From Membranipora membranacea (Eukaryota > Bryozoa > Gymnolaemata > Cheilostomatida > Membraniporidae): 64,000 nt of DNA. Where the stretch lies: contig OU612073.1 of assembly GCA_914767715.1 (NCBI GenBank), forward strand, positions 6,262,001-6,326,000, in the 5' to 3' direction. The notes below the pieces were generated by a model. It was given only the letters and a program-made list of their open reading frames with translations, did not search any database and had not been told where the DNA came from. Each line of letters begins with the position of its first letter. Position 1 is the first letter of the stretch. Of this stretch, positions 1 to 38,361 are shown one piece after another. The translations under genes were made by a program, and so were the position numbers.

Positions 1-56
1 GATGGCAGGACAATGAAATGACATGTAAATACATAAAAAATGATTAAGATAATAAC

Positions 57-3000
57 CTGGCTCAGGGGTAGTAGTTGGTAAGGTTGTTGTGCTTGTTGTT
101 GTGCTTGTTGTTGTGCTGGTTGATGTTGTTGGTAACATTCCGACCTCAACAGCTGAAAGGAGACATAAAAACGGAATCTCTCTAATTATGATAGCAATAC
201 AAAATATGTACCTGGCATATGGTGTTATTCTGTCATCTATAAATTCAAATGAATGCTTGATCCCTCTTTTTCATTTTAGATCCTAGATCCCTCTTTTTCA
301 TTTTAAATTATCTATCACAATGAATATATCAACAATTTAGATAAATAGTCATATTCTCATAGCACTTATTAACACAGAAATCAGGTAGGTGTGATATGTT
401 GAGACATTAGTTCTATATTCAAGTGTTGTGTAAATTTGAATAACTTAAAGACTACCTGGTTGCCTGACTATAACATGCATTGGTCCATGGGTAGCCTTTT
501 AGGGTGAGAAAAAGAACTTACATGTTTTCCAAGTAACATTCCAGCCACTGCGCACAACACTTCCATCAGTATGAAACAATAAGTTCATCTGGTTGGAGAG
601 CCCAATCACTGTTGCATCTGTTATGACTCCAGTGAGTTGTCTTAGTAAGCTTCCCGTTGGAGTGTCATATACCTTTACAATATCAACATTTTGATGAAAG
701 ATTAACAAAAATTATTGAACACATGAAGATTCTCATAATACAATGTAAAACGGCCAACAACTGGTTTGTGATTTATAAGCAATATAGTGATAAACATACA
801 TTGACATAGTCAAAGCCCCTCTCCACATTGAAGTAGATAAAACTTATTGCCACATAGTAACCTCCAGGGACAGAAATGTCGTAACGACAGTTTAGTCTGT
901 TATCGTAGAGATTAGGATAGTTAGGTGAGGTTAACCAACCACTCAGTCCTTCAAAGCTTGCGCTGTTGCATTCTAGTGAAAATAAAACAGTGATAAAGCA
1001 ATATATCTAAAAAGTAAAAACATATGCTTTGTCTGAGAAGTAAAGGCAGTGCACCTGTTCAGAATCTCAGAATATAATAGGAAAAAATCTAGTTATAATA
1101 GCTGAATCATGATTCCTTCATTATTATAAAGGCCAAATTCTTATGAAAATAAAATCATGTTCCTCGTAGGATAAATAATTGGGTCAACTAAGACAGGCAG
1201 AGAGTGGAAGAATTGTCGTTAGATATTAATACCCACACACTAACTAAAACAGAATATTGGGCTAATCCGATATTCTGCTTTTATTTTATGACAATTCTGC
1301 CACTCTCCGCCTGTTCTAACTGATCCCATGAAGTTATCTATCCTACAGACAATATGGTTTTGTTTCCATTAGATTTTGCTCTTTTTCTATCAAACCCATC
1401 CAAATAGTGTGAAGGGGAACTCAGTGTAATAATTTACATTAGGGGTCCAAGATTCAGATAAGATGGAAACATGATTGGATCAAGGGGTTTGATCGGATCC
1501 ACGTATAGAGTGCATCCTTTATTGTTTGTTTGGCACAATGTAGAAGCAATAATTAGAAGTGAGTATAGGGGTGCCAAGAAATTACATGCGATGTCTTTTT
1601 GTGTAAAATAGCCAGGATCACTATGATGACAATAGCTTTATAAAATTACAAGCGAAAAGTTTGTTGCGGCTTGTTGATGAAATGTCTTGCATATGAAAAT
1701 AACCAATTTTATAGCTAGTTACCTGGCTCAGGGGTAGTAGGACGAACAGTTGTTGTTGGTATTTCTCCAGCATAATCAGCTAGAAAGGATAGCAAAACAA
1801 ACTTCAATCTGCAATATTGTCATCTCATCTGAGTTATTAAAAAAGGTGTTTATTGTCCTATTATTCATCTACTTCCTTTCTGATCTTTCTCATAATAACT
1901 CATTGAATTTGAAAATATTCTACAATCATTCTTTTTAACTCGCAATATTCATACATTTCTCAGTAAATGCAATATATCCCACTACACTGGTTATTACATT
2001 CTCAACTAAGAGGAGAAAAAACTCACATTCTGTCCAGGTAATATTCCAGCCCCTGCGCACAGTACCTCCACTTGTATAAAACAGCAGATTCATTTTGTTT
2101 GAAAGTCCTATCACTGTTGTATCTGTCATCCTTCCGCTAAGTCTTCTCAATAATAACCCTGATTGAGTGTCATATACCTATGACATATTTAGACTTTCAA
2201 TGACGGAACGATCATAATCATTATTAATATAAGCGGAACAATGATACTACATAATTACCCTTGTGATTAAAGTGAAAAAAGAAACAACTGTTATGCAGAG
2301 GGTCGGTATCTAGTTTTAGTAGTATATACATACATAAACATAATCGCAGCATCGCTGGGTGTCAAGGTCCTTAACAGTTATGGCAACGTAGTGACCTTCG
2401 GTTACAGAAATGTTGTAACGACACTGTAGCCTGTTATCATATAGACCAGGGTAGTTAGGTGAGGTTAGCCATCCATTCGTTCCTTCAAAGCTGGCACTGT
2501 TGCATTCTAATTGATAGAAAATAGAGATCAAGTGACATGTGTGAGAGAACACAAGGCAGATCAGGATAATGTACTGATGAATTATTCACATATACTGTTC
2601 TCACTTGTTGTGGGTGGTAGTTGTTTCAACATGCTTTCAAATTCAGCTCCTGATTTGTTGTGAAATTTTCTTATACTTATTTAATCTTAGTAAAGTAAGT
2701 AAACCGAAGAGTTATTTTATCATTCATTTTCGCATTAGAGCACTACTTCTCTAATTTTGAAATACATGCACAGAATTATAAATCAAAATCACACGGCCTG
2801 TTATTGGCAGCAAGCATAGTTTTACTAATAAACCTAGACAGAACACTATATGGAGCAGTAGCATTGAGGCACTGAGGCATTTAATTGTGAGCGACATAAC
2901 TACATTGGAAGGTGTAGAAGCAATGATGCTATCGCTGTCCAAAATCCAGGTTTTTTGTCAATAACTCGATCAATTTTGGTCGGATTTTGAGTTTGAAAAT

Positions 3001-6000
3001 TATAATAGATTTAGCAGCTTGCCCTGAACAGTTTTACGCATAACAATCTTTTTGAGGAAGAAATATCATCAAGTTGATAACAAGAAGCTGCTGATTGTAA
3101 AGCAATTTTCAAATTCAGAATCCGATCAAAATTGATCTAGTTATGAACAAAAAACCTGTATGATGGCCAGTAAATCAATGATAGCATCATCGCTACTACA
3201 CCTTCCAATGACGCTACGTCGCCCCACAATTAAGTGCCTCAATTCAGCTGTATATGGTGTCTCGTCTAGGTTTATTATTAAGTCTATGGCAGCAACTAAT
3301 AAGGAACAGCGAATCTGGCAAGCGTTTGATTACACATGGCATTTGTAGCGGATAGGCATCGATCCACCATATTCAGTTTAACAAAGAATTTACTTTGACT
3401 AGGCTACCAAAATCAGAAATATCTTTGACTATGTTGCCTTTGACCAATACAGCATTGTGATAACTTTTGGTCTTAGTTTAGCAGCCTCGTAACTTTTCTA
3501 GGCAATTCATGGCTAGGTTTACTGTTATACTTCTGGTAGATCATCAATTAGTTTTAATCTGTCGCAGGGGATATAATATACTCTAGACACTTCTAGACCT
3601 TGGATATTTGATCATTGAAATCAGTTACATCATTCAATAATGTCCTTGTGCAAGTTAGTAAATTTATTTTGGTTTTTGGTTTTCCTAAACACTTTGGTAA
3701 AAATGTAAGCAATTCAATGATATCTATGGTCTCATATGATATCTAGGGAATGCAAAGACAAATTTGCATCCCAGTTCCTATCTTATAGAAATAGTTACCT
3801 GGCTCAGGGGTAGTTGTAGGTAAGGTTGTTGTAGGCAACTGTCCGGGTATGTCAGCTTAGAAAAATAATAAAACAACAGCAGCTCTTCAATCAACATTAT
3901 GACACATATCTGTATGGGTTTTGAATCCAAACATTTACATTGGCATTAGCACTCAAACTACTCACAAGATTATCATGCCAGTGCGATTCATCTTTTGCGC
4001 TTGTGATTTCCAACTCAATGAAAAATATTGTATGTTGCACAGCTCAAAAATATTGCTCCAAATGATAGAAACGCAAAAATTGCTCCAGAGCCAATCACTT
4101 TTGTATTGTGTTATGATTCAACCCACACTACCACACTCACTGGTTTGCGGGAAAAAGTTACTCCACATGTTTAAATAAACTTACATCGAGTCCAAGTAGC
4201 ATTCCAGCCAACGTCAGTACTGCCACCATTAGTATGGAACAACAGATTCATCTGATTTGAGAGTCCAATCACTGTTGTATATGTTAGGATTCCACGAAGT
4301 GTTCTCAGTAAGATGCCTGATCTAGTGTCATACACCTATGGTAAGTATATAGATAAATGATGTAATGAAACAGTGATACCAACTACATGAAATTTCAGAT
4401 ACTGATATAATGGTCTATAAAAAAACTTATCAATCACAGGGTAAGAATCTATACATTGGCGATAATGTAACAAAACATACATTGACATAGTCGCAGCATC
4501 CCTGTGTAGCAAAGGTGCTGAAAGTTATTGCGACGTAATGGCCCTCAGGAAGAGAAATATTGTAACGACAGTCCATATTGTTACCATAGCGACCAGGGTA
4601 ATTGGGAGAGGCTAGCCAACCACTCATTCCCTCAAAACTTGCACTGTTGCATACTATAAGAAATAAAGCAGATAACTACATATTATTTTCACATGATGAC
4701 AAGGTCCCAAAAAAACTCACTTACAATTTCTTGGCCAGTGTGGTGAGATGTTTAATAATCTTAGCATTACAAGATGGTGGTTTTATTTTTCAATTAATAT
4801 ATTATTTTAGCAACTGATTGTTTCATTTTTCCTATTAATCTGTATCTTATTTTTTATGAATGTTTATTTTTGTCCTATTAGGCTATCGGGCAAAGTGATT
4901 GTCCAGGAGGTTTAAGCCAAATTAATCAATATATGCTATTGGCTGTTTAAAAACATTATCATCATCTGAAGGTGCATGACGTGGCCTACCTTGCTGCATT
5001 TTCCTTGAGATTGGTTATAACACATTATGTTTCACAGCCATCACCTTGGAAGAGCCCACAACTCAACATTGGAATTCATCAAAGCACGCAGAAAAATGTG
5101 TAAACTAGGAAACAAGCCATGCAAATACTCATGCACCGTGTGAAATCCAACTCTGTTAACAGCACAAAGGGACAGTGTACTCACGATCAGTCAAATAGAT
5201 AGTAACTATTTACCTGGCTCAGGGGTAGTAGTAGGAAGAGTTGTTGTTGATCTATACTCATCAGCTGAAACAGTTTCAAAACAAAAGTTGCAGTGATGAT
5301 ATATTCATGACCTATTACAAAATCCAGCTCACTTTATTGCTTTATAATTCGGCTTAAAATCGGCTAAAATCTGCACCCTGTTTCGAAGAATGGGTGGCAA
5401 AATAGTTTGTGCCTTAAGGGCAAGGCTGCAATGTCTACGTAAATTTGCTCTCAGTTTGTAGGCAGGTCGCAGAACACCTGGAGATCCAGCAAGTCCCAGA
5501 AAGCAATGGACTGTAGTGGGGTTCGAACCCACGGCCTTCAACACTTGCATGCTGAAGTGCGGCGCATTAACCAACTGAGCCACCTTCTTCTTGAATGGTA
5601 GAACTGATTTTTTTTTCAATCAATATCTTCTTCTCCTGCCATTCCTCATAATAACCATGTTTCCCTTGTTTCTTAGCATTTACCATGTATTTTAGTATTT
5701 GACTCTAATATTTGAACAATAACTCAAGTGAGAGAAAAAATACTCACATTCTGTCCAGGTAACATTCCAGCCACTGGCTACTACATTTCCATCAGTCTTG
5801 AACAGCAGAGTCATTTCGTTCGAGAATCCATGTACTGTTTCATGTGCTATTACTCCGGTCAGCCTTGTCAGTAATATGCCAGATGGAGAGTCATATACCT
5901 ATAAAATATTTTAAGTTGCAATAATGAAACTTTAATAAACCTGTTAATATAATTCTTATACTATCTTTACTAACAAACTTGTACCGTGTAGATCTGTTTT

Positions 6001-9000
6001 GACAATAGCCAAGCAGATCACTGCATTTGCTAGATATGATAACATGATGTCACTGACCACCAGCATCCATCATGAAAAGCTTGAAACATGATCAGTTGAC
6101 ATCAAATGCCAAAATTACATTTTAATCATCATTACAAGACAATTTTGAATTATACTCACTTCCAAATAATCAAAGTTGTGTTCAAGGTTCATATCAACAA
6201 CAGTGAGCTTCACATATTTTCCTGACGGCACCACAATGCTGTAATTGCAATTGTGATTGTTTTCATAGTCACTACTGGGATAGTTAGGAGATGCTACCCA
6301 TCCACTGGCTCCTTGTAAGTTGGTGCTGGTACACTGACCGTCTGTAATGAAACAAACAAAACAGTTTTTGACCGAATAAGTAAATGCAATAAATGATAAT
6401 TGATATTCTCAACAGATGACTATAACATAACACAAAATTAATGTAATTCACTCTAACCAACATCAAATTTTAGCCTGGTATCACAATTGCTAATGGTAGG
6501 CTATTTCAAGGTATTAGAACAATCATTTACCAAGCGGATATAGAAAACTTTATCAAAGTGAAAAGTCATGAAAACAACGTAGTATATGCAGAGATACTTA
6601 AGGTCATGCCTCGCCTAGGTTACTAACTTGAGAACTGCCAGTCCATTCTACAATCTAATTGTAGCTATTTCTTGTTTGGTAAATTTCAAACCCTCAATTT
6701 TCTTTAATATAACTTATTATGATAGCGATTGCAATTTTAAAAATTTAAGCCACTAGTGCTTATTATCTTCTGATTTCTGAATTCATGAAGCAACTATTTT
6801 AATTCCAGTAGAGATTTTGATTCAAAACTTGGGAATACACAAAAATGATATGTTGGTAGGTAATGCCAATGCCATCGATTGCATTCCATAACATTAATGA
6901 ATTTACCCAAAACAAATTTTGGCAAGGCATAACCTAGAGATTGTTAGTGGATTGAAAAACTGAATGTACACATGTTTTCATTGTGTAGCAATATATTAGT
7001 GAACATGGGATAGGGTATTTTTAGCACATTATATATAACCAGAATAGATTACTATTGCCATGCTGATGATTGACCATAGAGTTATTACCATAGACAAAAC
7101 TGATGCTATTTTTGCACACATTTTTCACTCTAGAGTGTGTAATAACCATAGACAACACAACTATGTTGTTGTGTTTTTTGTCTATGGTTATTACACACTC
7201 TAGAGTGAAAAATGTGTGCAAAAATAGCATCAGTTGTTGTCCTACTTAATTATTGCGAAATCTACGACCACATGCAATCTGGTCGTTCATGGCTAGTGCA
7301 TGTTACATTATATTTATCATTGAGAGGATTAGAATCAGGGATGCAAGCTTCCTTTTTAGAGCACTCATAGCCGTCCTTTTCATAAAATTTTGTATGTAAC
7401 TCTATGTAGGTCATTTACGGGAAATTTATCTTGCATATTTAACCATTGCTTGCTACTTTCTGATGCCCCACTCCTTAGTCCGCTAGGGAGTTGGGGATGA
7501 CATTTCATTTTAGCATCTACTCCAGAGTCAACACAAATACAAAATAGTGGATCAGTCTGCTCAATGCAAACACGGCCGGGGCTTTATTGCCCGTCGGGCT
7601 GCCAGGGTAGCTTCTGCCCTTATGCCTGCCTTGGCTTCAGCCTTGGCGTGGTATCTTTGTTTACATTAACACAACTTCAGAAGATCTCTTCAACCAGAGC
7701 ACGAACATTCTCTCAGTAATTCTAAACCATATGAACCTTCGAATATTCACAATAATTATAATATTTCACATTTCATATTTATATTCTACATTTTTATCCA
7801 TGAGTGGTACTCAAACTGCAAACACAAAAATATTTTTCAGTGGCTATGGAACATTTAACCAGAATCGGACTTCACCTGTATAAAACATCACAACTAGAAT
7901 ATAAGCTAATATTAGAAATTCTAGGTGCTATGGGCTTTATTCCCATAAAAAAACAGGTTGGGTACCCCTATATCCTAGTCTAAAATGGCAAGGGGCTAAA
8001 CACGTGGGCATTCAATTGTCAAAATCACGAAGCCAGCCTTTTCATATTTTCAAATAGCCCTGTCATTCCAACACATTTGCCTTCAAAATAGGCCTTTTTT
8101 AGTTCCTTCGTGTAATTTAGAAGTTCAATATTACATGAAATAAAAGATTTAACTAACTAACTATCTTGCAGCCAATTTTTGTTTCTCCTATTAGAGTAAA
8201 CCAAAATCTCAACCGCAATCACATTAATGTGATAATAATCATAATTACCAGCCATATTTGCTGTCTCCTATCTTTTTTACTTCTATGTAACATACTCAGC
8301 GGGGATGTTTTGTCTGTTCATTATACTCTACTGACTATGATTTTTGACTACATGGTGTATAAGTAGCCTGCATCACTGTATTCCCTGTTCATCTTTGGTT
8401 GTTGCATGCATCGATGAGACCAGTAAGACAGTTGCCCGATAACTTTGGCTGCTATGTGGAAGCTTTGAAGCATAAAAAGAATTCCCTCTCAATTTTGGTG
8501 AATTTTCAAGCATGTATACAGTAGGTAGGCTACTGGAATTGGAGCTATTACTATAGAAATTGTTCCTGCAAAGTCCAAATTCTATAGGAGTCAATCAAAA
8601 AATATATCTTTAAACTTTAGAAAGTGTCAATGATGATTATTTCAGTCGTAAATCAGACCAGTTTGATAAAGATGACAGGCACATAGTAACGTTGATTGAT
8701 TTGTTGACACATTGTGAGATAGAAAGTTCCTCATTTAATCAGAATTTAAGTTCACACAGGCTGCTGACATTTAACCTATCCTGAACTTCCTCTTATATTA
8801 TTCAAGATAAGGCCTGAGGAATGTATGAGAAAGTTTGTAACAGTTAAATGTAAACAGCCAATGAGGTTTCAAAATCAATTGAATAAGGAACTTTCTTTTT
8901 TACGATGCATTGAATAACCATTTTGCTAGTCATTCAGCTGACATCCTTATCTAAGGGCCCTGGATTACAAATTGAATAATCATCATCAGATCCATCAAAA

Positions 9001-11224
9001 ACTTGGCAAAATTTTGAATGACTTTGTTCCAAAACCATGCTGACATGAATGCAGCGATGCCTAGATGCTCCATTCAGCTGCCAAAAAAACATGAATCAGC
9101 TGTTTTCTGACACTTTGTTTGCTGCAACTATGAAACTTAAACTGCAATTATAATGTACTTCCATCAAGGGACTTCGCTGCCAACACACTGCCGACTGTTT
9201 AATCATGGTCGACATATCATGAGAATACTGTAGAAATGGTGTGACAATAAGCTGTAGTGCCTCTTTGGTTACAGTCATGAGCCTTAAAAAGTATCCTGCT
9301 TGATGAAATTAGCCATCGAAGACTAGGAGTTATACCTCAAAACAGTTCAAAAATAACGAATATAAATTCACTCAAGGATTCTAGAGGTTGGAACAATGCT
9401 TTAAGAACTATTTACCCCATCTTACAAATTGCCAACCAGTAAAAAGCATATATGTAACCAAATATCATGCTCAGATCCTGCAATGGTGATAAAACCAGAA
9501 TGATTCCTGTATTGTCCTTCAACTTTTTTTAAAATGCAAGTGAACTTCATACAAAAGCAAACTAACTGCTCTCGCCAAAAATTACAAAGATTATAATATA
9601 GTAAGTCAATGTTGAACAATTTAATCCTAATAAGAGAAACTACATAGGTTGGAAAAAAGATATTAATCAGAGTCAGAATTGTTTGCCCCTTGTGCGGGAG
9701 CAAGCTGACCTTGACAGCCTTCCACTTCTTTTCCCTGCTTCACTGTCAATGTGAGATCTAATCAGTGATGGCTGCTGACTTGAACCACTGCTGCCACAGC
9801 TGGGCTTAGTCCAGCATAGCCACCAGTCAAAAATTTAAGTAGAGAGTTGTGGCATCAAAACATCTAGCCAGTAGTGATTGGTCAGGGTCAACTTCTGTCA
9901 TCACTAATGGTGGATGGCTGGGGAAGAAGATACTCCCTACTTTTTTGGAGCACATATAACTCCATGCAAAGCTACTGGCTAGATGTTTTGATGCCAAAAC
10001 TCTCCATTTAAATTTTTGACTGGTGGCTCTGCTGGGAAAAGCCCAGCTGTGTCAGCAGTGGTTCAACTATAGATAATGTACAATTTTTAATTTGCATATG
10101 TATATCACTGATATTGCTATCTTGACCTTAATATTAGCATTTGCGATACAACTGATAGCCATATTGATCCAAAAAAGAAACAATGACACATACCATAGTT
10201 TTTGTTGAGTGATTATCTTTTTACTCGGCATCAAGCCAGTTTCAACATTCTCAACACAGCACTTAGAGCTGCAGAAGTACGGAATTAAAATGCTATGCAA
10301 GAAGTAAGTAAGTCAGAATATGTTTGGGCTGTGAAGTCAATATTTTTACAATTTATAATCCAACTAATAAAATTGAAAGGATCATACTCTCAAGTACACA
10401 ACCAGTCGAGGCCTTAAAATATGCATTTTAGTTCGAATCCAACATTGATTTTACAGACATTTCATTTCATATACAGGGGTTGGCAATATGGAATAATGAT
10501 AAGGACCGAAAGAATTGAGTATCACTTACTCCTACCGATTTACTATGCTTACAGTTTCTCTCCAATTAATGTGGATAATTCCATAGAGTCTTAGCAAGAA
10601 AGGCTCTCTTGGGCCATATTTGGAGTTGCATGATGGATATTAATGGTCTATTGATGCTCGATTCATTAGAAAATCAAAAATTTGTTGCACACCTGACTGT
10701 GCGATGTATTGATTATATTGTATTGATTGTATTGATTACAATTAGGATTCAATATTATTGTATTCCTAGACCTTCTGGTATCTTTCTAGAAAAATTGAAT
10801 TTTTCGAATACCCATCAGCAATGTCACTCTAGTCGAGGGATGGGTAGCCGTAATGATTCGGGACAATTCTAATTATTCACTGAGAAATATCATTGAGTTA
10901 AAGTTAGTTATTATTTGTTTATGGTGCAATGGTTATGACTTCCAATTCATACTAATAAATAAAGGTTCTTGGTGCAAAACATGGAGCATATGTGCAGAAG
11001 ATGTGACCTTTCAGCCTGCAGGACAGGGCTTAGAGCAAGTGAATCTGTGCTCAACTATCATTTTACAATATGAAAAAGTTGGGCCAAATAATGAGATAAC
11101 GATAAAAAAATGATCAAAAATTGAAAGCTATATTTCCCTAATTGGTGTTAAATATTCAAGACTTACCGACATTGCTGATCCAGACACAGGCCAAAGTCAC
11201 CAAGGCTCGGCTCCTCCACGACAT
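57..11224 (-). CDS. Gene A: CUB-repeat mucin-like protein, 3' part outside the window
   Basis: Paralogue of gene B in the opposite orientation. Exons in transcription order: 11224-11167 (signal peptide), 6341-6160 and 5898-5748 (CUB1), 5264-5214 (linker), 4653-4481 and 4335-4185 (CUB2), 3855-3799 (linker), 2506-2334 and 2177-2027 (CUB3), 1779-1723 (linker), 972-800 and 672-522 (CUB4), 152-57 (Thr-rich linker). All junctions are GT/AG and phases agree (1, then 0/1/1 for each CUB-CUB-linker triplet). No stop or frameshift was seen in the exons. Exon lengths equal those of gene B except CUB2b (151 against 154 nt) and linker 2 (57 against 66 nt). CUB2 and CUB3 contain the CCDYV motif; CUB1 and CUB4 lack it. 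By comparison with gene B, the NIDO-AMOP-VWD-EGF-membrane part should lie to the left of base 57; that is inference. It could be a truncated 5' copy instead. Confidence 0.88.
1190..1318. mobile_element. Short foldback/MITE in intron, gene A
   Basis: About 26-bp inverted termini (GACAGGCAGAGAGTGG... against ...CCACTCTCCGCCTGTTC) around an AT-rich core of about 130 bp total. A diverged copy sits at the matching place of the right arm (22118-22238), so insertion predates the inverted duplication. No transposase is encoded. Confidence 0.65.
2755..3310. mobile_element. Foldback element, left arm only
   Basis: Two arms of about 200 bp (roughly 2790-3010 and 3100-3310) are inverted relative to each other: both contain the text read as CTCAATTCAGCTGTATATGG or its complement, a block around CAATGATAGCATCATCGCTA, and a block with GATCAAAATTGATC. 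The corresponding gene B intron (20254-20903, 650 bp) is 642 bp shorter than this one (2507-3798), as expected for an insertion after the duplication. Fragments of the same family recur near 11937-12120, 25880-25920 and 40600-40665. Confidence 0.7.
5334..5600 (-). mobile_element. tRNA-derived SINE in gene A intron
   Basis: On the minus strand the element begins with a tRNA-like head: an A-box-like segment (GTGGCTCAGTTGGTTAATGC) and a B box (GGGTTCGAACCCC) 36 bp further on, followed by about 180 bp of non-tRNA body. The ends do not pair as an acceptor stem, so it is not a working tRNA gene. The right-arm copy is at 18676-18925, so the insertion is older than the inverted duplication. Confidence 0.8.
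6772..9312. other. 2.5 kb segment present only in the left arm (gene A intron 1)
   Basis: Arm-to-arm comparison is continuous up to about 6771 and again from about 9313, while the right arm joins the two points directly near 17392. The extra DNA explains why gene A intron 1 is about 4.8 kb and gene B intron 1 about 2.3 kb. No clear terminal repeats or target duplication are visible at the ends, so it may be a deletion in the right arm. It contains a perfect hairpin (7099-7234) and a short GC-richer block near 7570-7660. I see no gene in it. Confidence 0.7.
7099..7234. repeat. Long near-perfect hairpin
   Basis: The two halves, each about 60 bp, are reverse complements with a short loop around 7157-7165. 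The arm contains the palindrome CTCTAGAG and ends at ACTGATGCTATTTTTGCACA and its complement. A further partial copy of the arm text lies just upstream (7070-7095). Looks like a small foldback MITE or a replication-derived palindrome. Confidence 0.85.
9782..10065. mobile_element. Foldback MITE with ~105-bp inverted termini (left-arm copy)
   Basis: Starts GAACCACTGCTGCCACAGCT and ends with the inverted equivalent; arms include CATCAAAACATCTAGCCAGT and its complement around a unique core of about 85 bp. The right-arm copy (16721-16946) keeps one full terminus but has lost the outer part of the other, the sequence jumping directly to flanking DNA. Shared by both arms, so older than the duplication. 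Confidence 0.8.
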
Positions 11225-11280
11225 CGCACAACACTCACTGGTCTCAGATAGGTATACCTGAAACACCAGTTTCACTAAGC

Positions 11281-11288
11281 ATTTATGC
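11281..11288 (-). promoter_or_regulatory. Degenerate TATA box of gene A
   Basis: At the position of gene B's TATAAAT (15500-15506), gene A reads CATAAAT on the minus strand, 57 bp or so upstream of its ATG. The surrounding sequence (GGGnATAAATGCTTAGTG) is otherwise nearly identical. Whether the base change weakens transcription is not visible from sequence. Confidence 0.6.
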
Positions 11289-13245: not shown

Positions 13246-13284
13246 AGAAAAATAGAAGAAATGGCTGAATCACAGTCCTGTGTG

Positions 13285-13460
13285 CTACCAACTATGTGTA
13301 GTATAACCAGTTGAGGGTGTGCTATTTATATTTTTTGTCTGATATGAAATCTTGAAATCAATTAAAAATTAAAAAACAGCTTACTTTACCCATACATCTC
13401 CAACATACATCAATGAAATTGAGTAAGCTTCAGCAGCTTGGGTGGCCGAGTGGATAGTGC
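13285..13460 (+). repeat. Dispersed repeat with tRNA-like head, copy 1
   Basis: About 165 bp nearly identical to 49255-49420. It runs from GTGCTACCAACTATGTGTAG to a tRNA-like A box (GGGTGGCCGAGTGGATAGTG). No B box follows; the tRNA-like part breaks off into the polypurine tract. Probably the junction of two SINE or MITE fragments. Confidence 0.7.
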
Positions 13461-13493
13461 GCTGGGCTCAAGCAGGGGGATAATGTTCTCGGT

Positions 13494-13584
13494 GGGAGGG
13501 GGAAAAGGGGAAAAGAAAAAAAAAGAAGAAAAAAGGAGAGAAAAGGAAAAGAAGGGAGGAAAAAAAAGGAAAAAGAAAGAAAAA
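13494..13584 (+). repeat. 91-nt uninterrupted polypurine tract
   Basis: Only A and G for 91 bases, mixed GGGG and AAAA runs. Polypurine mirror-like tracts are known in general to form triplex DNA and stall replication forks. Its location in the spacer of a large palindrome is notable. Confidence 0.9.
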
Positions 13585-14380
13585 TAATTGCTAATCTGCT
13601 AAATTCCCATCAATTTACACGCATTTATCTACCAGAACTCAGGATTCGGTTTTCTTCCAAGCTTTCTACGAATTCTATATTGAGTTGTCTTCTCATGTTG
13701 TATGGGGAGAGAACTCTTCCATATCTGTTGTGCATATTTTTGAGGATTTTGGTGTAAACCTCTCTGGTGTAGCTATGGATAGGTATGATCAGGATCATTA
13801 ACAGCTTCTCAACGGTCTATTTTATCTTCAAGACATTAAAGTTTAGTGGAATATGTCATATCATGATCTGAAAGGAGAATTATGGACAGATGACAGTTGT
13901 TGAAAATACAGCTTAGTCTTTGAAACTAAGAACGAAATGTTCTATGCAACTGCTAGCTTAGTCGGGTGAATCAGCTTACATTAGTTCTGCGTAAATATAA
14001 AACTATATTTGGCAGACTAATCTTGAAATACAGGACTGTGGCTACCCTCAGCCACTCTGCTTGCTAGGCACAGTATATATCAGGTATTGAAAAATTAAAT
14101 TTTATATTGTGATGTATAGAGTTTGGGGACAAATTGACCTGTGAATAGTAAAGTTTAAGCTCATGAGCCTCACTCTTTATAATTAATGGATTTGCAAGGA
14201 TCGTTAACAAAAATACTATCAATAGAATGTTTCCTTCAGAAAACACTTACAATTGTTTGTGTATGCAACACTTTGTTGTTGTCGTGAATCGGAGTTCATG
14301 TCGCTGACACTTGATCTAATTGCATTCAGAAGAGAACCTAATGTTTTTGAATGTTGTTGGGGAATGTTGATGATATTTCC

Positions 14381-15270
14381 TTATAGTCCAGTAGTATGTA
14401 TGTTTATATTTGGTCTCAATCTCTGAGAAATAAAACTGTCTCTGTAGGGTGCTCTGTAAAAATTATTAAAACTGTTGATTCTGTAAAAATAAATAAAATG
14501 ATAAGACCATAAAAAAAATACTATTACTTTTGGAAGACACTATTTAGGTATTTGATACATTCTGCTCTAAAACATTTGGCACGGATCTGCACGCGGAACT
14601 TGACTGATTGATATCTGCCTGACGGCAGCTGGTTAAGACGGAGTAGTGGTGCATCTTCGGTGGCAATCATACGGAGGCTCTTTACTTTCAGTATATTAGA
14701 GTAAAGGTCGTCTACGGGTGTGAACTATGAAGTGACTCTATGAAGGACTTGTAGCAGGTCGTTATTAGTTTCTCAGTGACACCGAGATGGTATAGCTTGG
14801 CGATTATATGTAGCCTTTGGCGAGCTTTCGCTGTAGTTTTCAAGGTGTTCAGAGTAAAATCCAGTTTGTTGGTAATAATGGTGCCTAAGTATGTAAATTG
14901 TTCTACCTGCTCAATTGAAGCATTGTTTACAAGCAGTTGTGGGTAGCTTGGGTTATCCCTTGCATTGCACATGACCATTTCTTTTGTTTTCTTTGCATTG
15001 AGTATTAGGTCATTATCCGCGCACCATGAGTTGATGGTATTAGACATTGTTTGAAGTTCAGATGGCTGGTTTTCTGTCAACAATTCAATGATCACAGTGT
15101 CGTCAGCATATTTTTCTAGTTTGATGTTGATTGTTGATGGCATATCGACAACATAAAAGGAGAATAGCAGTGGGCTGATGACACATCCCTGAGGGCTTCC
15201 AGTTGATGTAATAACTCGCTGTGTTCTATTTGTAAGGAAGTTATATAGCCAGTTGATGATGTTAGGATTG
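14381..15270 (-). pseudogene. 5'-truncated LINE with reverse-transcriptase fragment
   Basis: Minus-strand reading frame (from about 15270 to 14712) encodes the central and C-terminal part of a non-LTR reverse transcriptase: SPQGCVISPLLFSFY, then KYADDTVII (catalytic YADD near 15091-15113), then a WCADNDLILNAKKTKEMVM segment and the FTYLGTIIT motif. These signatures fit CR1/Rex-like LINEs. The preceding 5' half is missing, so it is dead. The left arm has an uninterrupted sequence at 11500-11525, which dates the insertion after the duplication. Followed by a 3' untranslated tail to about 14381. Confidence 0.85.
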
Positions 15271-15499
15271 ATTAGTAGTAAACCACTGCAACATAAACTG
15301 AAAGTCAATAATGTTATTTTCATTCGGCCTTGATTATGGTCCCAGTCTAACACAGTAGTAAACATATGCATGATCTTTTTTTGGCACCCTATACTATAAT
15401 ATGTTATGATTGGCTATTGGCTTGACTTCAGTCAACCAGTAGGAACAAATTTTACATTAGAGCAATCTGCACATAGAGTGTAGTTTGGCTAGGCTAGGG

Positions 15500-15506
15500 T
15501 ATAAAT
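15500..15506 (+). promoter_or_regulatory. TATA box of gene B
   Basis: TATAAAT 57 bp upstream of the ATG at 15563, within a block conserved in gene A (there CATAAAT) and functionally echoed by TATTTAA before the gene C start at 38362. Confidence 0.65.
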
Positions 15507-15562
15507 GCTTAGTGGAACTGGTGTTTCAGGTATACCTATCTGAGACCAGTGAGTGTTGTGCG

Positions 15563-15620
15563 ATGTCGTGGAGGAGCCGAGCTTTGGTGACTTTGGCCTG
15601 TGTCTGGATCAGCAATGTCG
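15563..15620 (+). CDS. Gene B exon 1: signal peptide
   Basis: 58 nt, phase 1 out, donor GTAAGT. Encodes M, a basic start (SWRSRAL) and a hydrophobic stretch ending ...CVWISNVG. The exon has the same length and phase in gene A (11224-11167) and at 38362-38419, which supports this ATG. Confidence 0.9.
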
Positions 15621-18600
15621 GTAAGTCTTGAATATTTAACACCAATTAGGGAAATATAGCTTTCAATTTTTGATCATTTTTTTATCGTTATCTCATATTT
15701 TTGCCAAGCTTTTTCATATTGTAAAATGATAGTTGAGCTCAGATTCACTTGCTCTAAGCCCTGTCCTGCAGGTTGAAAGGTCACATTTTCTGCACGTATG
15801 CTCCATGTTTTGCACCAAGAACCTTTATTTATTAGTATGAATTGGAAGTCATAACCATTGCACCATCAACAAATAATAACTAACTTTAACTCAATGATAT
15901 CTCTCAGTGAATAATTAGATTTGTCCCGAATCATTATGGCTACCCATCCCTCGACTAGAGTGACATTGCTGATGGATATTCGAAAAGTTCAATTTTTCTA
16001 GAAAGATACCAGAAGGTCTAGGAACACAATAATATGGAATCCTATTCTAATCAATACAATCAATACAATATAATCAATACATTGCACAGTCAGGTGTGCA
16101 ACAAATTTTTGATTTTCTAATGAATCGAGCATCAATGGACCATTAATATCCATCATGCAATTTCAAATATGGCCCAAGAGAGCCTTTCTTGCTAAGACTC
16201 TATGGAATTTCCCACATTAATTGGAGAGAAACTGTAAGCATAGTAAATCGGTAGGAGTAAGTGACACTCAATTTTTTCGGTCCTTATCATTATTCCTAAC
16301 ATATGCCAACCCCTGTATATGAAATGAAATGTCTGTAAAATCAATGTTGGATTCGAACTAAAATGCATATTTTAAGGCTTCGACTGGTGGTGTACTTGAG
16401 AGTATGATCCTTCCAATTTTATTAATTGGATTATAAATTGTAAAAATATTGACTTCACAGCCCAAACATATTCTGACTTACTTATTGCTTAGAATTTTAA
16501 TTCCGTACTTCTGCAGCTCTAAATGCTGTGTTGAGAATGTTGAAACTGGCTTGATGCCGAGTAAAAAGATAATCACTCAACAAAAACTGTGGTATGTGTC
16601 ATTGTTTCTTTCTTGGATCAATATGGCTATCAGTTGTATCGCAAATGCTAATATTAAGGTCAAGATTGCAATATCAGTGATATACATATGCAATTTAAAA
16701 ATTGAACATTATCTATAGTTGAACCACTGCTGACACAGCTGGGCTTTTCCCAGCAGAGCCACCAGTCAAAAATTTAAATGGAGATTTTGGCATCAAAACA
16801 TCTAGCCAGTAGCTTTGCATGAGTTATATGAGCTCCCAAAAAGTAGGGAGTATCTTCTTCCCCAGCCATCCACCATTAGTGATGACAGAAGTTGACCCTG
16901 ACCAATCACTACTGGCTAGATGTTTTGATGCCACAACTCTCTACTTGACAGTGAAGCAGGGAAAAAAAGTAGGAGGCTGTCAAGGTCAGCTTGCTCCCGC
17001 ACAACGGGCAAACAATTCTGACTCTGATAAATATTTTTTCCCAACCTATGTAGTTTTTCTTATTAGGATTAAATTGTTCAACATTGACTTACTATATTAT
17101 AATCTTTGTAATTTTTGGCGAGAGCAGTTAGTTTGCTTTTGTATGAAGTTCACTTGCATTTTAAAAAAAGTTGAAGGACGATACAGGAATCATTCTGGTT
17201 TTATCACCATTGCAGTATCTGAGCATGATATTTGGTTACATATATGCTTTTTACTGGTTGGCAATTTGTAAGATGGGGTAAATTGTTCTTAAAAGCATTG
17301 TTCCAACCTCTAGAATCCTTGAGTGAATTTATATTCGTTATTTTTGAACTGTTTTGAGGTATAACTCCTAGTCTTCAATGGCTAATTTAAAATAAGCACT
17401 AGTGGCTTAAATTTTAAAATTTCAATCGTTATCATAATAAGTTATATTAAAGAAAATTGAGGGTTTGAAATTTACAAAACAAGAAATAGCTACAATTAGA
17501 TTGTAGAATGGACTGGCAGTTCTCAAGTTAGTAACCTAGGCGAGGCATGACCTTAAGTATCTCTGCATATACTACGTTATTTTCATGACTTTTCACTTTG
17601 ATAAAGTTTTCTATATCCGCTTGGTAAATGATTGTTCTAATACCTTGAAATAGCCTACCATTAGAAAAGAAAGTGAATAGTGGGACATCAATTTTGATAC
17701 ACCCCCATCTTGATCAATGCCCAATCGTTTTGTGTTCACAAAGATATCGTATATTTCAATCAAAGCAATTGTGATACCAGGCTAAAATTTGATGTTGGTT
17801 AGAGTGAATTACATTAATTTTGTGTTATGTTATAGTCATCTGTTGAGAATATCAATTATCATTTATTGCATTTACTTATTCGGTCAAAAACTGTTTTGTT
17901 TGTTTCATCACAGACGGTCAGTGTACAAGCACCAACTTACAAGGAGCCAGTGGATGGGTAGCATCTCCTAACTATCCCAATAGTGACTATGAAAACAATC
18001 ACAACTGCAATTACAGCATTGTGGTGCTGTCAGGAAAATATGTGAAACTCACTCTTGTTGATTTAAACCTTGAACACAACTTTGATTATTTGGAAGTGAG
18101 TATGATTCAAAACTGTAATGTGATGATAATCAAGATATATTTTTGGCATTTTATGTTAACTGCTCATGTTACAAGCTTTTCATGAGGGCTGGCAGTCAGT
18201 GTCATCATGGTTTCACATCTCGCGCATGGAGTAATCTGCTTGGCTATTGTCAAAACAGATCTACACGGTCTTATTATGTTAGTAAAGATACTATAAGTAT
18301 TATTCTAATGTGTGCATCACCTTTTCATTATCGCAATGTAAAATATTTTATAGGTGTATGATCCTCCATCTGGCATATTATTGAGAAGGCTGACTGGAGT
18401 TATAGCACATGAAACAGTACTTGGATTCTCGAACGAAATGACTCTGCTGTTCAAGACTGATGGAAATGTAGCAGCCAGTGGCTGGAATGTTAGCTGGACA
18501 GAATGTGAGTTTTTTTGTCTCTCACTTGAGTTATTGTTCAAATATTTTAGTAAATTACTAAAATACATGGTAAAAGCTAAGAGACAGGGGAATACTCGGC

Positions 18601-21600
18601 AGGAGTCAGTTGGTTGATAAGCATGGTTATTATGAGGAATATCAGGAGAAAAAGACCAGTTCTAACATTAGAAAGGAAGGTGGCTCAGCTGGTTAGAGCG
18701 CCGAACTTCAGCACGCAAGTGTTGAAAGTTGTCGGTTCGAATTCCACTACAGTCCATTGACTACTGGGACTTGTTGGACCCCCAGGTGTGCTCCGACCTG
18801 CCTACAAACTGAGAGCAAATTTGTGCAGACATTGCAGCCTTCCCAGGCATAAGCTATTTCGCCACCCATTCTTCAGAATGGGCTGCGGATTTTAACCAAT
18901 TTTTAACCGAATTATAATGCTATAACGTAAGCCTGATTTTGTAAGCGGTCATAAATATACCATCACCGCAATAAACAACTTATGTTTTGAAATCGTTTCA
19001 GCTGATGAGTATAGATCAACAACAACTCTACCTACTACTACCCCTGAGCCAGGTAAAAAGTTACTATCTATTAGATTGATTGTGAGTACACATGTCCTTT
19101 CGTGCTGTTAACAGGATTTTCCACACAGTGCATGAGTCTTTGCATGGCTTGTTTCCTAGTTTACACATTTTTCTGCATGCTTTGATGAATTCTAAGGTGA
19201 TGGCTGTGAAACGTAATTTGTTATAACCAATCTCAAGGAAAATGCAGCAAGGCAGGCCAAGTCAAGATGATGATGATAATATTTCCAAACAGCCAATAGC
19301 ATCCCTTGATAAATTTGGCCTAAACCTCCTGAACAATCACCTTGCCCGATAGCCAATAGGACAAAAATAAACATTCATAAAGAAGAAGATACTGGATATT
19401 AGGATAAATTAAACAATCAGTTGCTAAAATATTTTAATTGAAAACACCTGCCGAAAAATTGCAAGTGAGTTTTTTTGGGTCCGTGTCATCATGTGAAAAT
19501 AATATATAGTTATCTGTTTTATTTCTTATAGTATGCAACAGTGCAAGTTTTGAGGGAATGAATGGATGGTTAGCTTCTCCCAATTACCCTGGTCGCTATG
19601 GGAACTATATGGACTGCCGTTACAACATTTCTGTACCTGAAGGTCACTATGTTGCCATTACGTTCAATGACTTTGCTACAGAGGAATGCTGCGACTATGT
19701 AGATGTATGTTTTTTACATTATTGCCTAAAATGATTTGAACCCTATGACTGATAAATTTGTATATGGAGTTAGACCATTGTATCATTATGAGGAAGGTTA
19801 TGTAGTTAGTATGATTGTTTTATTACACAATTTATCTATATATATATATAGGTATATGATACTAAATCAGGCATCTTCCTCAGAAGACTTCGCGGAAGGA
19901 TGATAACAGATACAACAGTGATTGGGCTGTCCAATACACTGAATCTGAGGTTTCATACTGATCGTAGTGGCATTAGCATTGGCTGGAAAGTTACTTGGAC
20001 TCTGTGTGAGTTTATTTTAACGTGTGGAGTAATTTTTTCCCACCACAGAATCATGTGTGTAGAAGTGAGTGTTGAATCATAACAGATCCAACAGTGATTG
20101 GCACTTTAGCTTTTGTACGCTACATATCGTACATATCCAACTTTCTGGCATGCGCATAAATATCATAATGTTTATTTATTTTTAAAGCTGATGCACCTGG
20201 ACAATTGCCGACAACAACAACGACAACAGTACGCACGACTACTCCTGAGCCAGGTAACGTTATCTATAAGACAAGTAGTGGATGTAAATTTGTCCTTTCA
20301 TTGAGTAGATATCAGATAAGTCTGTTCAACTGGAATGCTTATTTTTCTATTTAACAATTTATTCTTTGAAGTATCTTTCAACTGGACATTCATATTGCAT
20401 TAATATTAGAAAAATTGAACTTGAATGCACACATATAGCATCCAATTAACAATGGGATTTTGTTTTCTCTCATTATGCATGCAGAAAAAATACGAATCAA
20501 TTTCATATCGATTCAAGTATCTTGTATTCCGACTGGTTTGTGAGATTTCATATGGTGAATTAATGCCTAACGCTAATTGGGCTGCTGGTCCTTATTAATT
20601 GCCATTGTATTTACAGTTGAAACAAGCAAATTTCTTTACCATTGGTGAACCTAATATGAAACTTAAAATTCCCCCTTCAATCATGAGTCTTAATGTATTT
20701 TCTCACTAAGTAATGAAGATAATTGATTTTGGGTGTGGCATCAGTAATTTTCACAGCAAATTACAAAACAAGCGGTAGCTGAATGTAAGAAAATGTTGAA
20801 ATATCCACCACCTACACCAAGTGAAAACAGACATTTGATCAGTCAATCATCCAGATCAAGCTCACCTCCTCATGTTCTATTTACTCTGACTTTTATCAAT
20901 TAGAATGCAACAGTGCTAGCTATGAAGGCACAAATGGATGGCTAACCTCGCCTAACTACCCTCGTCTCTATGACAACAGACTACGGTGTCGCTACAACAT
21001 TTCTGTACCTGAAGGACACTACGTTGCCATAACTGTTAACGACCTTGACACCCAGGAATGCTGCGATTATGTCAATGTAAGTTTATTACTAAAACAAGAT
21101 ACTGACCCTCTGCATAACTGCATTTCTTTTTATCACCTTCATCACAAGGGAGATTATGTAGTGTCATTGTTCCGCTTTTATTTATAATGATTATGATCGT
21201 TCCGTCATTGAAAGTCTAAATATGTCATAGGTATATGACACTCAATCAGGGTTATTATTGAGAAGACTTAGCGGAAGGATGACAGATACAACAGTGATAG
21301 GACTTTCAAACAAAATGAATCTGCTGTTTTATACTAATGGAGGTGCTGTTAGAAGTGGCTGGAATATTACCTGGACAGAATGTGAGTTGTTTTCCCTCTC
21401 AGTTGAGTATGTAATAACCAGTGTAGTTGGATATTGCATTTACTGAGAAATGTGTGAAAATTGCATGTTAAACAATATGTTTTTAGAATATTTTCAAATT
21501 CAATGAGTTATTATGGGAAAGATCACGAAGGAAATAGATAAATAATAGAACAATAAAAACTTTTTTAATAACTCAGATGAGATGACAATATTGCAGATTG

Positions 21601-24600
21601 AAGTTTGTTTTGCTATCCTTTCTAGCTGATTATGCTGGAGAAATACCAACGACAACTGTCCGTCCTACCACCCCTGAGCCAGGTAACTAGCTATTAAATT
21701 GGTTATTATTATATGAGAGACATTTCATCAACAAGCTGCAACAAATTTTTCGCTTATGGTTTTAGCAAGCTATTGTCATCAAAGTGATCCTGGCTATTTT
21801 ACACAAATAGACATCACATGTAATTTCTTGGCATCCCTATACTCACTTCTAATTATAGCTTCTACATTGTGTCCAGTGAACAATAAACGATGCATTCTTT
21901 ACGTGAATCCGAACAACCCCTTAGGCCAGTCGTTTTTCCATCTTAACTGATTGTTGGATCCCTGGTGTAAATTATTTCATATTCACTATATCGGCGGAGT
22001 GTAATCGCACCAACTTCCCCTTCACACTATTTGGATGGGTTCGATAGAAAAAGGACAAATTCTAATGGAAACAAATCCATACTGCCTGTAAGATCAATCA
22101 CTTCATGCTGTCAGTTAGAACAGGCGGAAAGAGGCGGAATTGTCATAAAACAGAATAACAGATTAGCTCAATATTCTCTTTTAGTAGGTGTGTGGGTATT
22201 AATATTTAATGACAATTCTTCCACTCTCTGCCTGTTTTATTTGACCCAATTATTTATCATAAGGGGAAAATGGTTTTATAATTCATAAGAATTTGGCCTT
22301 GTTAATAATGAAAATATCATGATTCAACTATCATAACTAATTTTACTTTTAGATATATTGCTTTATCTCTGTTCTAATTCCACTAGAATGCAACAGCGCA
22401 AGCTTTGAAGGCCGGAGTGGATGGTTAACCTCACCTCACTATCCTGGTCACTACGAGAACAGGCTAGACTGTCATTACAACATTTCTGTTCCTGGAGGTT
22501 ACTATGTGGCAATAAGTTTTATCGACTTTAAAGTGGAGAGGGGCTATGACTATGTCAATGTATGTTTATCACTATATTGCTTATTAATCACAAATCAGTT
22601 GTTGGCTGTTTTACATTGTATTATGATAATCTTCATGTGTTCAATCATTTTTGTTAATATTTCATCAAAATGTTGACATTGTAAAGGTATATGACACTCC
22701 AACGGGAAGCTTACTTAGACAACTCACTGGAGTCATAACAGATGCAACAGTGATTGGACTCTCCAACCAGATGAATTTATTGTTTCATACTGATGGAAAT
22801 ACTAGGAGCAGTGGCTGGAATGTTACTTGGAAAACATGTGAGTTCTTTTTCTCAATCTAGAGTTATTCAAATTTTCACAATACTTAAATATAAAACTAAG
22901 GTTTCTCGGCATATCACACCTACCTTAGATCTGTGTCAATAAGTGCTATGAGAATATGACTATTTTTCTAGATTGATGATATAGGCATTGTGTTGGAGAT
23001 TTAAAATAAAAAAGAGGGATCAAGGATTTAAAATGAAAAAGAGGGATCAAGCCTTCATCGAATTTATAGATGACAGAATTACACCATATACCAGGTACAT
23101 ATTTTGATTTGCTATTATGATTAAAGACTTTCCGTTTTTATGTCTCATTAAGCTGTTGAGGTCGGAATGTTGCCAACAACATCAACCAGCACGACAACTA
23201 GCACAACAACCAGCACAACAACCTTACCATCTTCTACCCCTGAACCAGGTTATTATCTAAATCATCTTTTAATGCATTTAAATTTCATTTATTAAAAAGA
23301 AGGTGAAAACACACACTGTTATATTCCTAATAAAACCTTTCGTGATTTGTTTGCTTACAACATAGACATGAAACCATTGTCTCTGCTCACACTCATGTCT
23401 GATTGAAATATATAACATGGGACCAAACTTTTCATGAAGGATTCCTTTTATAAATTGTTCTCGCTTATCCAAATTTCTGATTGCTAAATCGTGATTTGCC
23501 ATTTCTGTTGATATCGCTCCCTAAATTTGATTTTACAAGGTTTGGTACCTATTCCCAAATATCACTGGTTTTCTGTTTTATCTCAATTAGAATGCAACAA
23601 TACCGGCTTTGAAGGCATGGAAGGATGGTTAGTCTCGCCTAACTACCCTGATCTCTACCAAAATGGGCTTGACTGTCGTTACAATATTACTGTACCTGAG
23701 GATTTCTACGTTGCCTTGACCTTCATCAACTTCGACACCGAGCAATGTTGCGACTATGTCCATGTATGTTATATCATTATTGTCTATAAAAATTACTACT
23801 AAATAAGATGAAATTGACGTTTTTGGAGAGTTGTCTGCCCATGTCACGTTTTCTATGCAAATTGAGAAATGTTTACAAAATCGGAAAATAAGAAGCTGTC
23901 TTCTCTTTATCCTAATAAGGCGTTGTATAATGAAAATATTTGAAAGAGAAGACAACTTTTATCTTCCGCAAAAATGTAGGCGATTTTGAAAAACACTAGG
24001 AAAACGTTGCATTGGTAGCTAGACAGCAATTCAAAACTGTTGGCACTGCTAAAAAAGTCCGAAAAACTTCCTAGTATAAACTCACAAAAAAGAGCAACGG
24101 TTCATCAATAAATCTATATTTTTGAAATGTGTCCTTCTTATCATAGGTATTTGACACACCATCAGACACTCTGCTAGGAACTTTCACAGGAAATATGAAT
24201 AATGGTAAAGTGATATACGGACTTTCAAATGAGATTCATGTGGTATTTATAACAGATGGGGACGGTGTTAAATACGGATGGAACATGACTTGGACAGCAT
24301 GTGAGTATTTAGATGGTTTATTGGGATGTGTATATGAATTGTTTGAGTGATTGCTTTTTTTATGCAATGTGGCAGCACAGGCCTTCAAGTTATCATCAGT
24401 TAACTATTTTGAAATACCAGCTGAAGTAATGCCATATTTTTAATTCAATAAATTTTTTTTTATCATGTTCGATGAATTCCATGGTGGTTCATCTCTATTT
24501 TTTAGCTGTCAGTGTCATGAACAACAAGCCACTTACTGTTTGCTCCCATTTTGATGAGCATGATCTTGGTTTCCCCTTTTGTTTATGAGTGTTTATTTTG

Positions 24601-35947: not shown

Positions 35948-36092
35948 ATCAGATGCACTCTGAGTGTTAATTATCATAAATGTTCAAATGCATATCATGC
36001 ATCCGTATGGTATCGCTTCAGCCGTTGAATATATATATATCACATAATACAAATCATTACCATGTCTTAAACGTTTGATGACTTTTCAGTTG

Positions 36093-36098
36093 AATAAA
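36093..36098 (+). terminator. Polyadenylation signal of gene B
   Basis: AATAAA 145 bp after the stop codon, the first canonical hexamer downstream. Cleavage would be expected about 15-30 bp later. Confidence 0.6.
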
Positions 36099-38280: not shown

Positions 38281-38291
38281 CTAGGTGAGGC

Positions 38292-38298
38292 TATTTAA
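38292..38298 (+). promoter_or_regulatory. TATA-like box of gene C
   Basis: TATTTAA 64 bp before the conserved ATG at 38362, close to the spacing of TATAAAT in gene B. Confidence 0.45.
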
Positions 38299-38361
38299 GA
38301 TAGCAGCAAAACTTCATTCAATCATACTTTGAAATCACCTTTTACATAAATGTTCAAGACA

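What the first reader, a model, noticed from the sequence alone, without database searches (positions are those of the whole stretch)
1..23304. Giant palindrome carrying two divergent copies of the same CUB-mucin gene
At least 11.8 kb of the left arm is the inverted copy of 14039-23304 around a 2.2 kb spacer. Both copies keep open exons, matching splice sites and phases, yet differ by substitutions and by several transposon insertions or deletions, so both have been maintained for some time. Head-to-head duplication puts the two promoters about 4.3 kb apart.
Basis: seen in the sequence. Interest (0 to 1): 0.75.

Follow-up and report, generated by a model that had tools for sequence, protein, structure and literature searches.

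The report
Mirror-image mucin gene pair, patchily homogenised
A stretch of a sea-mat (bryozoan) chromosome carries two complete, mirror-image copies of a large mucin-like cell-surface gene that have drifted apart in some parts and seem to have been copied back into likeness in others, a known kind of duplicated gene pair seen here in unusual detail.

Summary
The palindrome is real and larger than reported. The window is chromosome 9 of a 339-Mb assembly whose sizes fit the bryozoan Membranipora membranacea. Fetched flanks show arms of about 26.7 kb (window -14849 to 11843) and 24.6 kb (14039 to 38610) around a 2,195-bp spacer, with no N in 184 kb. Each arm holds one complete 38-exon gene: signal-like peptide, five CUB domains with threonine-rich linkers, NIDO, VWD with GDPH, C8-3_MUC4, EGFs and a likely membrane anchor. 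Both are open end to end (2,045 and 2,049 residues); over the first 34 exons dN/dS is 0.18. Misjoined alleles are unlikely, though no reads were seen. Neighbouring paralogue D is about equally distant over six shared segments (A-D p=0.49, B-D p=0.16), whereas A and B are not (p=1.5e-9), pointing to arm-to-arm gene conversion rather than constraint. This is a new member of a known kind: an inverted duplicate pair partly kept alike by conversion, within a local cluster of four related genes. Expression and function are untested.

The parts
1..11843 (-). Left arm (arm A) of the palindrome inside the window; it continues leftward to window position -14849 (C9:6247151)
   Evidence: Inverted BLAST blocks
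11844..14038 (.). Spacer, 2,195 bp; its right part (about 13442-14040) matches eight other places in the genome at 92-95%
14039..38610 (+). Right arm (arm B) of the palindrome
1..11224 (-). Gene A inside the window: exon 1 (11224-11167), CUB1-CUB4 and four Thr-rich linkers; it continues to a stop codon at window -12728
   Evidence: 13 exon pairs in the window, 34 exon pairs, last 4 exons
15563..35947 (+). Gene B, 38 exons, 2,049 residues: signal-like peptide, CUB x5, Thr-rich linkers, NIDO, VWD, C8-3_MUC4, EGFs, hydrophobic segment, tail
6157..11843 (.). Low-divergence island I, arm A side (5' flank, exon 1, intron 1, start of CUB1): 2.8% of 2,808 noncoding columns
   Evidence: HMM; change point A6151/B18104
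14039..18098 (.). Low-divergence island I, arm B side
25390..25945 (.). Low-divergence island II, arm B side (NIDO exon x2 and its 3' intron); partner A -2366 to -2921; 2.1% of 291 noncoding columns
27781..30414 (.). Low-divergence island III, arm B side (exons x6-x12: end of the AMOP-like part, VWD, C8); partner A -5000 to -7623; 2.5-4.6% noncoding in two pieces; synonymous differences about 6 of 134 sites in VWD
14381..15251 (-). Insertion in arm B of a high-copy repeat with a reverse-transcriptase-like open frame (resemblance recalled, not searched); A has the empty site near 11517-11531
6765..9305 (.). 2,541-bp insertion in intron 1 of gene A with an internal palindrome (7093-7241); absent from B
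19739..21089 (+). Among the least alike stretches of the pair (end of CUB2 and following introns): 19-26% noncoding divergence; CUB2 dS 0.57

Best explanation
A whole gene for a membrane protein with five CUB domains and a MUC4-like core, with its flanks, was duplicated as a head-to-head inverted copy (the structure is shown; the copying event is inferred). Both copies stayed complete and under purifying selection (shown over 34 exons). The arms drifted apart to about 11-23% at noncoding sites, while gene conversion between the arms reset some tracts to about 3%: the promoter-exon 1-intron 1 end next to the spacer, and much of the NIDO/VWD/C8 core (pattern shown; conversion is the inferred cause). 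The expected result is two genes with nearly the same promoter and core but more different CUB heads (inferred; expression not examined).
For: Inverted arms with collinear order of 38 exons. Over the first 34 exons both frames are open, 1,694 of 1,827 aligned residues identical, dN 0.035, dS 0.192; the last four exons are open in both. A 3-state model of noncoding divergence (3.3/10.9/22.7%) is preferred over 2, 1 and 4 states (BIC 10367, 10393, 10827, 10432); window variance is 49.8 against at most 14.9 in 2,000 shuffles. Outgroup control: rounded synonymous differences A-B by segment 20/198, 12/93, 6/134, 11/108, 27/99, 36/122 (p=1.5e-9), while the same six segments against D show no significant difference (A-D p=0.49, B-D p=0.16). 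Against C they do differ (A-C p=0.015, B-C p=3e-5), but C is farthest in NIDO and closest in the first EGF segment, the reverse of what constraint on the islands would give.
Against: Only one genome was examined, so donor and direction of conversion are unknown. Island I is almost all noncoding and has no outgroup, so constraint there is not formally excluded. Distance to paralogue C is uneven (A-C p=0.015, B-C p=3e-5), so rates or further exchanges do vary between segments, though C is near saturation and only 12 of its exons were used. Shuffling columns ignores regional variation in mutation rate. No reads, alternate haplotype or transcripts were inspected.
Confidence: 0.85

Rival explanations
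1. Assembly artefact: two alleles of one gene, or a folded read, joined as a false palindrome.
For: Palindromic misjoins do occur (general knowledge); no read evidence was available here. The genome note reports 62 missing or mis-joins corrected and 17 haplotypic duplications removed by hand.
Against: A folded read would give near-identical arms; these are 90.0% identical over 20,600 aligned columns. Synonymous divergence of 0.19, up to 0.57, is in my judgement far above alleles, and is very uneven. No N in 184 kb, so no scaffold gap at the spacer; HiFi 66x, contig N50 7.0 Mb. Each copy has its own insertions.
Confidence: 0.04
2. The islands are not converted but constrained: promoter, intron 1 and the NIDO-C8 core evolve slowly for functional reasons.
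For: Promoters and core domains can be constrained; dN in the NIDO-C8 segments is low (0.014-0.022). Distances to paralogue C do vary by segment.
Against: Synonymous sites show the islands too, while distance to paralogue D does not differ significantly over six segments (A-D p=0.49, B-D p=0.16), and C is farthest, not closest, in NIDO. Noncoding windows inside island III are 2-8% divergent against 10-23% just outside it. Island I has 2.8% of 2,808 noncoding columns yet tolerates 14 gap openings and a 2.5-kb insertion in A.
Confidence: 0.08
3. Two separate duplication ages: the outer arms are old, and the inner part was duplicated again recently.
For: One sharp change point at A6151/B18104 (log-likelihood gain 132.6 against at most 10.0 in 200 shuffles).
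Against: Further islands lie inside the outer arms (A -2366 to -2921; A -5000 to -7623; several shorter ones), collinear and with no extra copy seen there.
Confidence: 0.05

Closest known systems
Inverted-repeat paralogue pairs of Caenorhabditis (F44E5.4/F44E5.5; CBG13231/CBG13232), Zhao et al. 2007, PMC1803023 (abstract and passages read)
   Same: Head-to-head paralogues; in CBG13231/CBG13232 the central 5' part stays identical while the far part of the genes has diverged; gene conversion proposed as one mechanism
   Different: There the structure was followed across three species and the arms are 2,207 bp at the F44E5.4 locus; here arms are about 25 kb, one species only, and islands also lie far from the centre
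Primate sex-chromosome palindromes (PMC3723533, PMC8981503; abstracts in search listing)
   Same: Long inverted arms, arm-to-arm conversion
   Different: Those arms exceed 99% identity; here 90% overall with islands at about 97%, and nothing here ties chromosome 9 to sex
hsp16 and hsp70 adjacent inverted paralogues of C. elegans (PMC3966223, passages read)
   Same: Adjacent inverted paralogues with inferred conversion
   Different: The hsp16 module is 1.9 kb and described as 100% identical; here large genes with patchy likeness
Mucin4-like proteins with N-terminal CUB domains in sea anemones (PMC9080433, passages) and coral skeletal mucin4-like proteins with N-terminal TSP1 (PMC4890752, passages)
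   Same: NIDO, VWD and related core with extra N-terminal domains
   Different: Here five CUBs with Thr-rich linkers and only a sub-threshold AMOP; tissue and role unknown
'Mucin-like protein' of the bryozoans Watersipora subatra and Bugula neritina
   Same: 46-55% identity over 47-65% of the query
   Different: Five proteins were fetched: two begin with Ser/Thr-rich stretches, three are short or perhaps truncated at the start, and none lists a CUB domain

Membership tests
Inverted duplicate gene pair with arm-to-arm conversion | Two long arms in opposite orientation around a short spacer | tested here: met
   Arms about 26.7 and 24.6 kb, spacer 2,195 bp
Inverted duplicate gene pair with arm-to-arm conversion | Arms more alike in tracts than age or constraint explains | tested here: met
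   A-B synonymous divergence uneven (p=1.5e-9) while A-D (p=0.49) and B-D (p=0.16) are not significantly so; A-C and B-C are uneven but in the opposite sense; noncoding HMM. Met for coding islands; island I has no outgroup
Inverted duplicate gene pair with arm-to-arm conversion | Likeness within species exceeds that between species | not tested
   No close relative with this locus was at hand
Sex-chromosome-type palindrome | Arm identity above 99% | tested here: not met
   90.0% over 20,600 aligned columns
MUC4 mucin | NIDO domain | tested here: met
   PF06119 E=4.3e-22
MUC4 mucin | AMOP domain | tested here: inconclusive
   Not listed at E<=0.1; E=0.55, 10.8 bits against cut-off 25, at the expected place
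MUC4 mucin | VWD domain with GDPH motif, C8-3_MUC4, EGF domains | tested here: met
   PF00094 E=4.3e-12, PF23263 E=9.1e-9, EGF families; GDPH read in both proteins
MUC4 mucin | Transmembrane segment and cytoplasmic tail | tested here: inconclusive
   A hydrophobic stretch and short tail are open in both copies; no membrane predictor was run
MUC4 mucin | Long Pro/Thr/Ser-rich mucin region | tested here: not met
   Only four Thr-rich linkers of 17-32 codons, read by eye; hence called MUC4-like core, not filed as MUC4
Allorecognition locus of a colonial animal | Extreme allelic polymorphism and linkage to fusion outcome | not testable with these tools
   One assembly only; no cross or population data

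The most novel reading that the evidence does not exclude
The mosaic is adaptive: conversion keeps one shared promoter and one shared membrane-side core in both genes, while the CUB heads (CUB2 dS 0.57, CUB4 dN/dS 0.61) escape conversion and diversify, so the mirror pair serves as a small generator of different receptor or mucus heads on a common chassis, possibly for self/non-self or microbe recognition in a colonial animal.
Probability: 0.08. Interest if true: 0.75.

Novelty: new member of a known kind. Interest (0 to 1): 0.42.

Why it matters
It gives a dissected case, in a phylum with few annotated genomes, of how an inverted duplicate with 25-kb arms ages: likeness is patchy along the arm, with an island some 16-19 kb from the inner arm ends, and conversion can be told apart from constraint because further paralogues lie next door. 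Neither copy looks degraded, so the pair offers a test of whether promoters next to the centre of such pairs are homogenised in general.

Tried and rejected
Misjoined alleles or folded read: rejected as unlikely on divergence, separate insertions and absence of N, without read evidence. Constraint as the cause of the islands: rejected for the coding islands by the D control, not formally for island I. The C control is uneven (A-C p=0.015, B-C p=3e-5); C is near saturation, only 12 of its exons were used, and the trend runs against constraint, but B-C is lowest in the first EGF segment (0.48 of synonymous sites), which could mean some exchange with C; not followed. Origin of the high CUB2 divergence from another CUB repeat: exon c2b of A and B is as unlike (0.77) as c2b is to the CUB3 and CUB4 copies (0.72-0.78), but the trees still pair A_CUB2 with B_CUB2 (support 94-100), so an ectopic CUB-to-CUB copy was not adopted. 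First exon model of x5: my first acceptor added 11 residues of intron in B and gave an apparent frame change in A; comparison with Watersipora proteins pointed to another acceptor, and A is then open. The B protein used still contained those 11 residues. GC-biased conversion: noncoding GC is 0.336 in the low state and 0.344 in the high state, no support. Noncoding columns still contained the last four exons, found later. Rfam (gathering thresholds) and tRNA scans of the window: nothing. Paper searches with bryozoan and palindrome or conversion terms (7 of 7 listed, 10 of 585 listed) showed no such bryozoan case in the listings.

Of the 120 proteins listed (of 309), five were fetched and read. 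The second protein search (CUB part) gave 8 hits, none with a bryozoan name; one of them bears no species name.
Full report
WHERE THE WINDOW LIES. The window is G000:C9:6262001-6326000 of a 339,339,785-bp genome in 18 contigs; C9 is 25,735,955 bp. The published Membranipora membranacea assembly is 339.4 Mb with a chromosome 9 of 25.74 Mb, built from 66x HiFi reads, 10X and Hi-C, contig N50 7.0 Mb (PMC10290214, first of three parts of the text read). The species is therefore inferred from sizes. Protein hits agree: the two best hits, and the highest identities over about half the query or more, are bryozoan (four Watersipora subatra proteins, one Bugula neritina). Below, positions outside the window are counted on its own scale: position p is C9:6262000+p.

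THE OBSERVATION. Self-comparison of the window shows a chain of inverted blocks. Adding 40 kb on the left and 20 kb on the right extends the left arm to -14849 and the right arm to 38610: about 26.7 and 24.6 kb around a 2,195-bp spacer, 53.5 kb in all. The window plus wider flanks, 184 kb, holds no N. The arms are 90.0% identical over 20,600 aligned columns. In a search of the assembly with window 9000-16000, the non-repeat part of the inner arms matched only the two arms; that search scored 40 of 2,238 first-look candidates, so more distant or missed copies are possible.

TWO COMPLETE GENES. Thirty-four exons of gene B were modelled by splice sites and phase and mapped on arm A; after one acceptor was corrected, 34 of 34 pairs agree in phase and both frames are open, 1,827 and 1,831 codons. 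The last four exons are also open in both, ending at the same stop codon, for 2,045 and 2,049 residues. Each CUB is two exons, and the CUB and linker modules begin and end in phase 1, as expected of shuffled modules. One GC-AG intron (after exon x2) is kept in both copies. Over the first 34 exons, 1,694 of 1,827 residues are identical, dN 0.035, dS 0.192, ratio 0.18: purifying selection, no sign of a pseudogene.

WHAT THE PROTEIN IS. Pfam finds five CUB stretches, NIDO, VWD, C8-3_MUC4 and EGF families in B. The GDPH motif, where MUC4 is putatively cleaved (PMC8660890, abstract in search listing), is present in both copies. AMOP is only suggested (E=0.55), and there is no long mucin region, so I do not file it as a MUC4 mucin. 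CUB on a MUC4-like protein is not new: sea-anemone mucin4-like proteins can carry N-terminal CUB (PMC9080433, passages), and a snail protein (P0126) lists CUB, NIDO, VWD and C8-3_MUC4. A basic stretch before the last extracellular part looks like a furin site (recalled motif, not tested).

A CLUSTER, NOT ONLY A PAIR. tblastn of B exons over 184 kb finds two more relatives: C (+, about -43.9 to -24.5 kb, ten CUB half-exons) and D (+, about 75.0 to 93.0 kb, four CUB half-exons). The order is C(+) A(-) B(+) D(+). A and B are each other's closest of the four: dS to D is 0.5-1.0 and to C larger or saturated. Whether more copies lie elsewhere in the genome did not complete.

THE MOSAIC. In the window, noncoding divergence is 3.3% of 2,822 columns inside A6290/B17964 and 15.0% of 3,299 outside. 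The best change point is at A6151/B18104, gain 132.6 log units, against a maximum of 10.0 in 200 shuffles. Over the whole arms a 3-state hidden Markov model fits best (3.3, 10.9 and 22.7%; BIC 10367 against 10393 for two states, 10827 for one and 10432 for four). In the two-state fit the main low islands are A 11843-6157 (promoter side, exon 1, intron 1), A -2366 to -2921 (NIDO) and A -5000 to -7623 in two pieces (exons x6-x12), with several shorter ones. Synonymous divergence follows: VWD 0.046, NIDO 0.105, C8 0.109, but the two EGF parts 0.33 and 0.38 and CUB2 0.57; CUB1 (0.127) and CUB4 (0.123) are also low.

WHY CONVERSION. If the islands were simply slow, paralogue D should be closer there as well. 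Synonymous differences A-B across six segments are about 20/198, 12/93, 6/134, 11/108, 27/99 and 36/122 (chi-square 49.9, p=1.5e-9), whereas the same segments show no significant unevenness for A-D (chi-square 4.4, p=0.49) or B-D (8.0, p=0.16) (counts rounded). The more distant C is uneven (A-C p=0.015, B-C p=3e-5), but it is farthest in NIDO and closest in the first EGF segment, the reverse of constraint on the islands; it is near saturation and rests on 12 exons. CUB exons were not in this control because D has too few. Island I has no outgroup and rests on the contrast with the gene's other introns. Insertions in island I (2,541 bp in A, 871 bp in B) are unshared, so they came, or were kept, after the last homogenisation there (inference).

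COMPARED WITH WHAT IS KNOWN. In C. briggsae the pair CBG13231/CBG13232 is 59.6% identical overall but 100% over the first 297 nt next to the inverted centre (PMC1803023, passages): the same shape as island I. Adjacent inverted paralogues with conversion are discussed in PMC3966223 (passages). Primate sex-chromosome palindromes exceed 99% identity (PMC3723533, PMC8981503, search listing), which this one does not. I therefore file it as a new member of a known kind. Its distinct points are size, apparent age, two intact large genes, and low-divergence islands far from the centre.

LIMITS. One assembly, no reads, no transcripts, no second haplotype, no second species. Searches of the whole genome for further relatives did not complete. 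Shuffles treat columns as independent. Function in the animal is unknown; links to skeleton, mucus or recognition are guesses.

Noticed in passing
11282-11287 (A, - strand) and 15500-15505 (B, + strand), 58-63 bases before the start codons: A TATA-box-like TATAAA in B reads CATAAA in A, inside an otherwise nearly identical promoter-proximal stretch; it could make the two promoters unequal. Start of transcription unknown.
   Followed up: partly
Window -43.9 to -24.5 kb (L017, L009, L010) and 75.0 to 93.0 kb (L014, L018): Two further genes of the same kind, C and D, both on the + strand, flank the palindrome.
   Followed up: partly
19532-20005 and 4653-4185: CUB2 is the least alike domain of the pair (dS 0.57, dN 0.135), and CUB4 has the highest dN/dS of the segments measured (0.61).
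   Followed up: partly
31059-31850 (exons x14, x15) against C at -27346 to -26355: B is closer to C in the first EGF segment (0.48 of synonymous sites) than in the others (0.68-0.81); possible exchange with C.
   Followed up: no
62114-63262, + strand: Open frames with a signal-like start and a long Thr/Ser/Pro-rich repeat; could be the first part of gene D or another mucin.
   Followed up: no
40888-43457, + strand: Long open frames (169, 203 and 369 codons) resembling a hAT-type transposase (recalled resemblance; not searched).
   Followed up: no
53563-56261, - strand: Reverse-transcriptase-like open frames of a LINE-type element (recalled resemblance; not searched).
   Followed up: no
49422-50250: Array of overlapping direct and inverted repeats.
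   Followed up: no
2815-3288: Fold-back element (inverted repeat of itself) in a part of arm A that has no aligned partner in arm B.
   Followed up: partly
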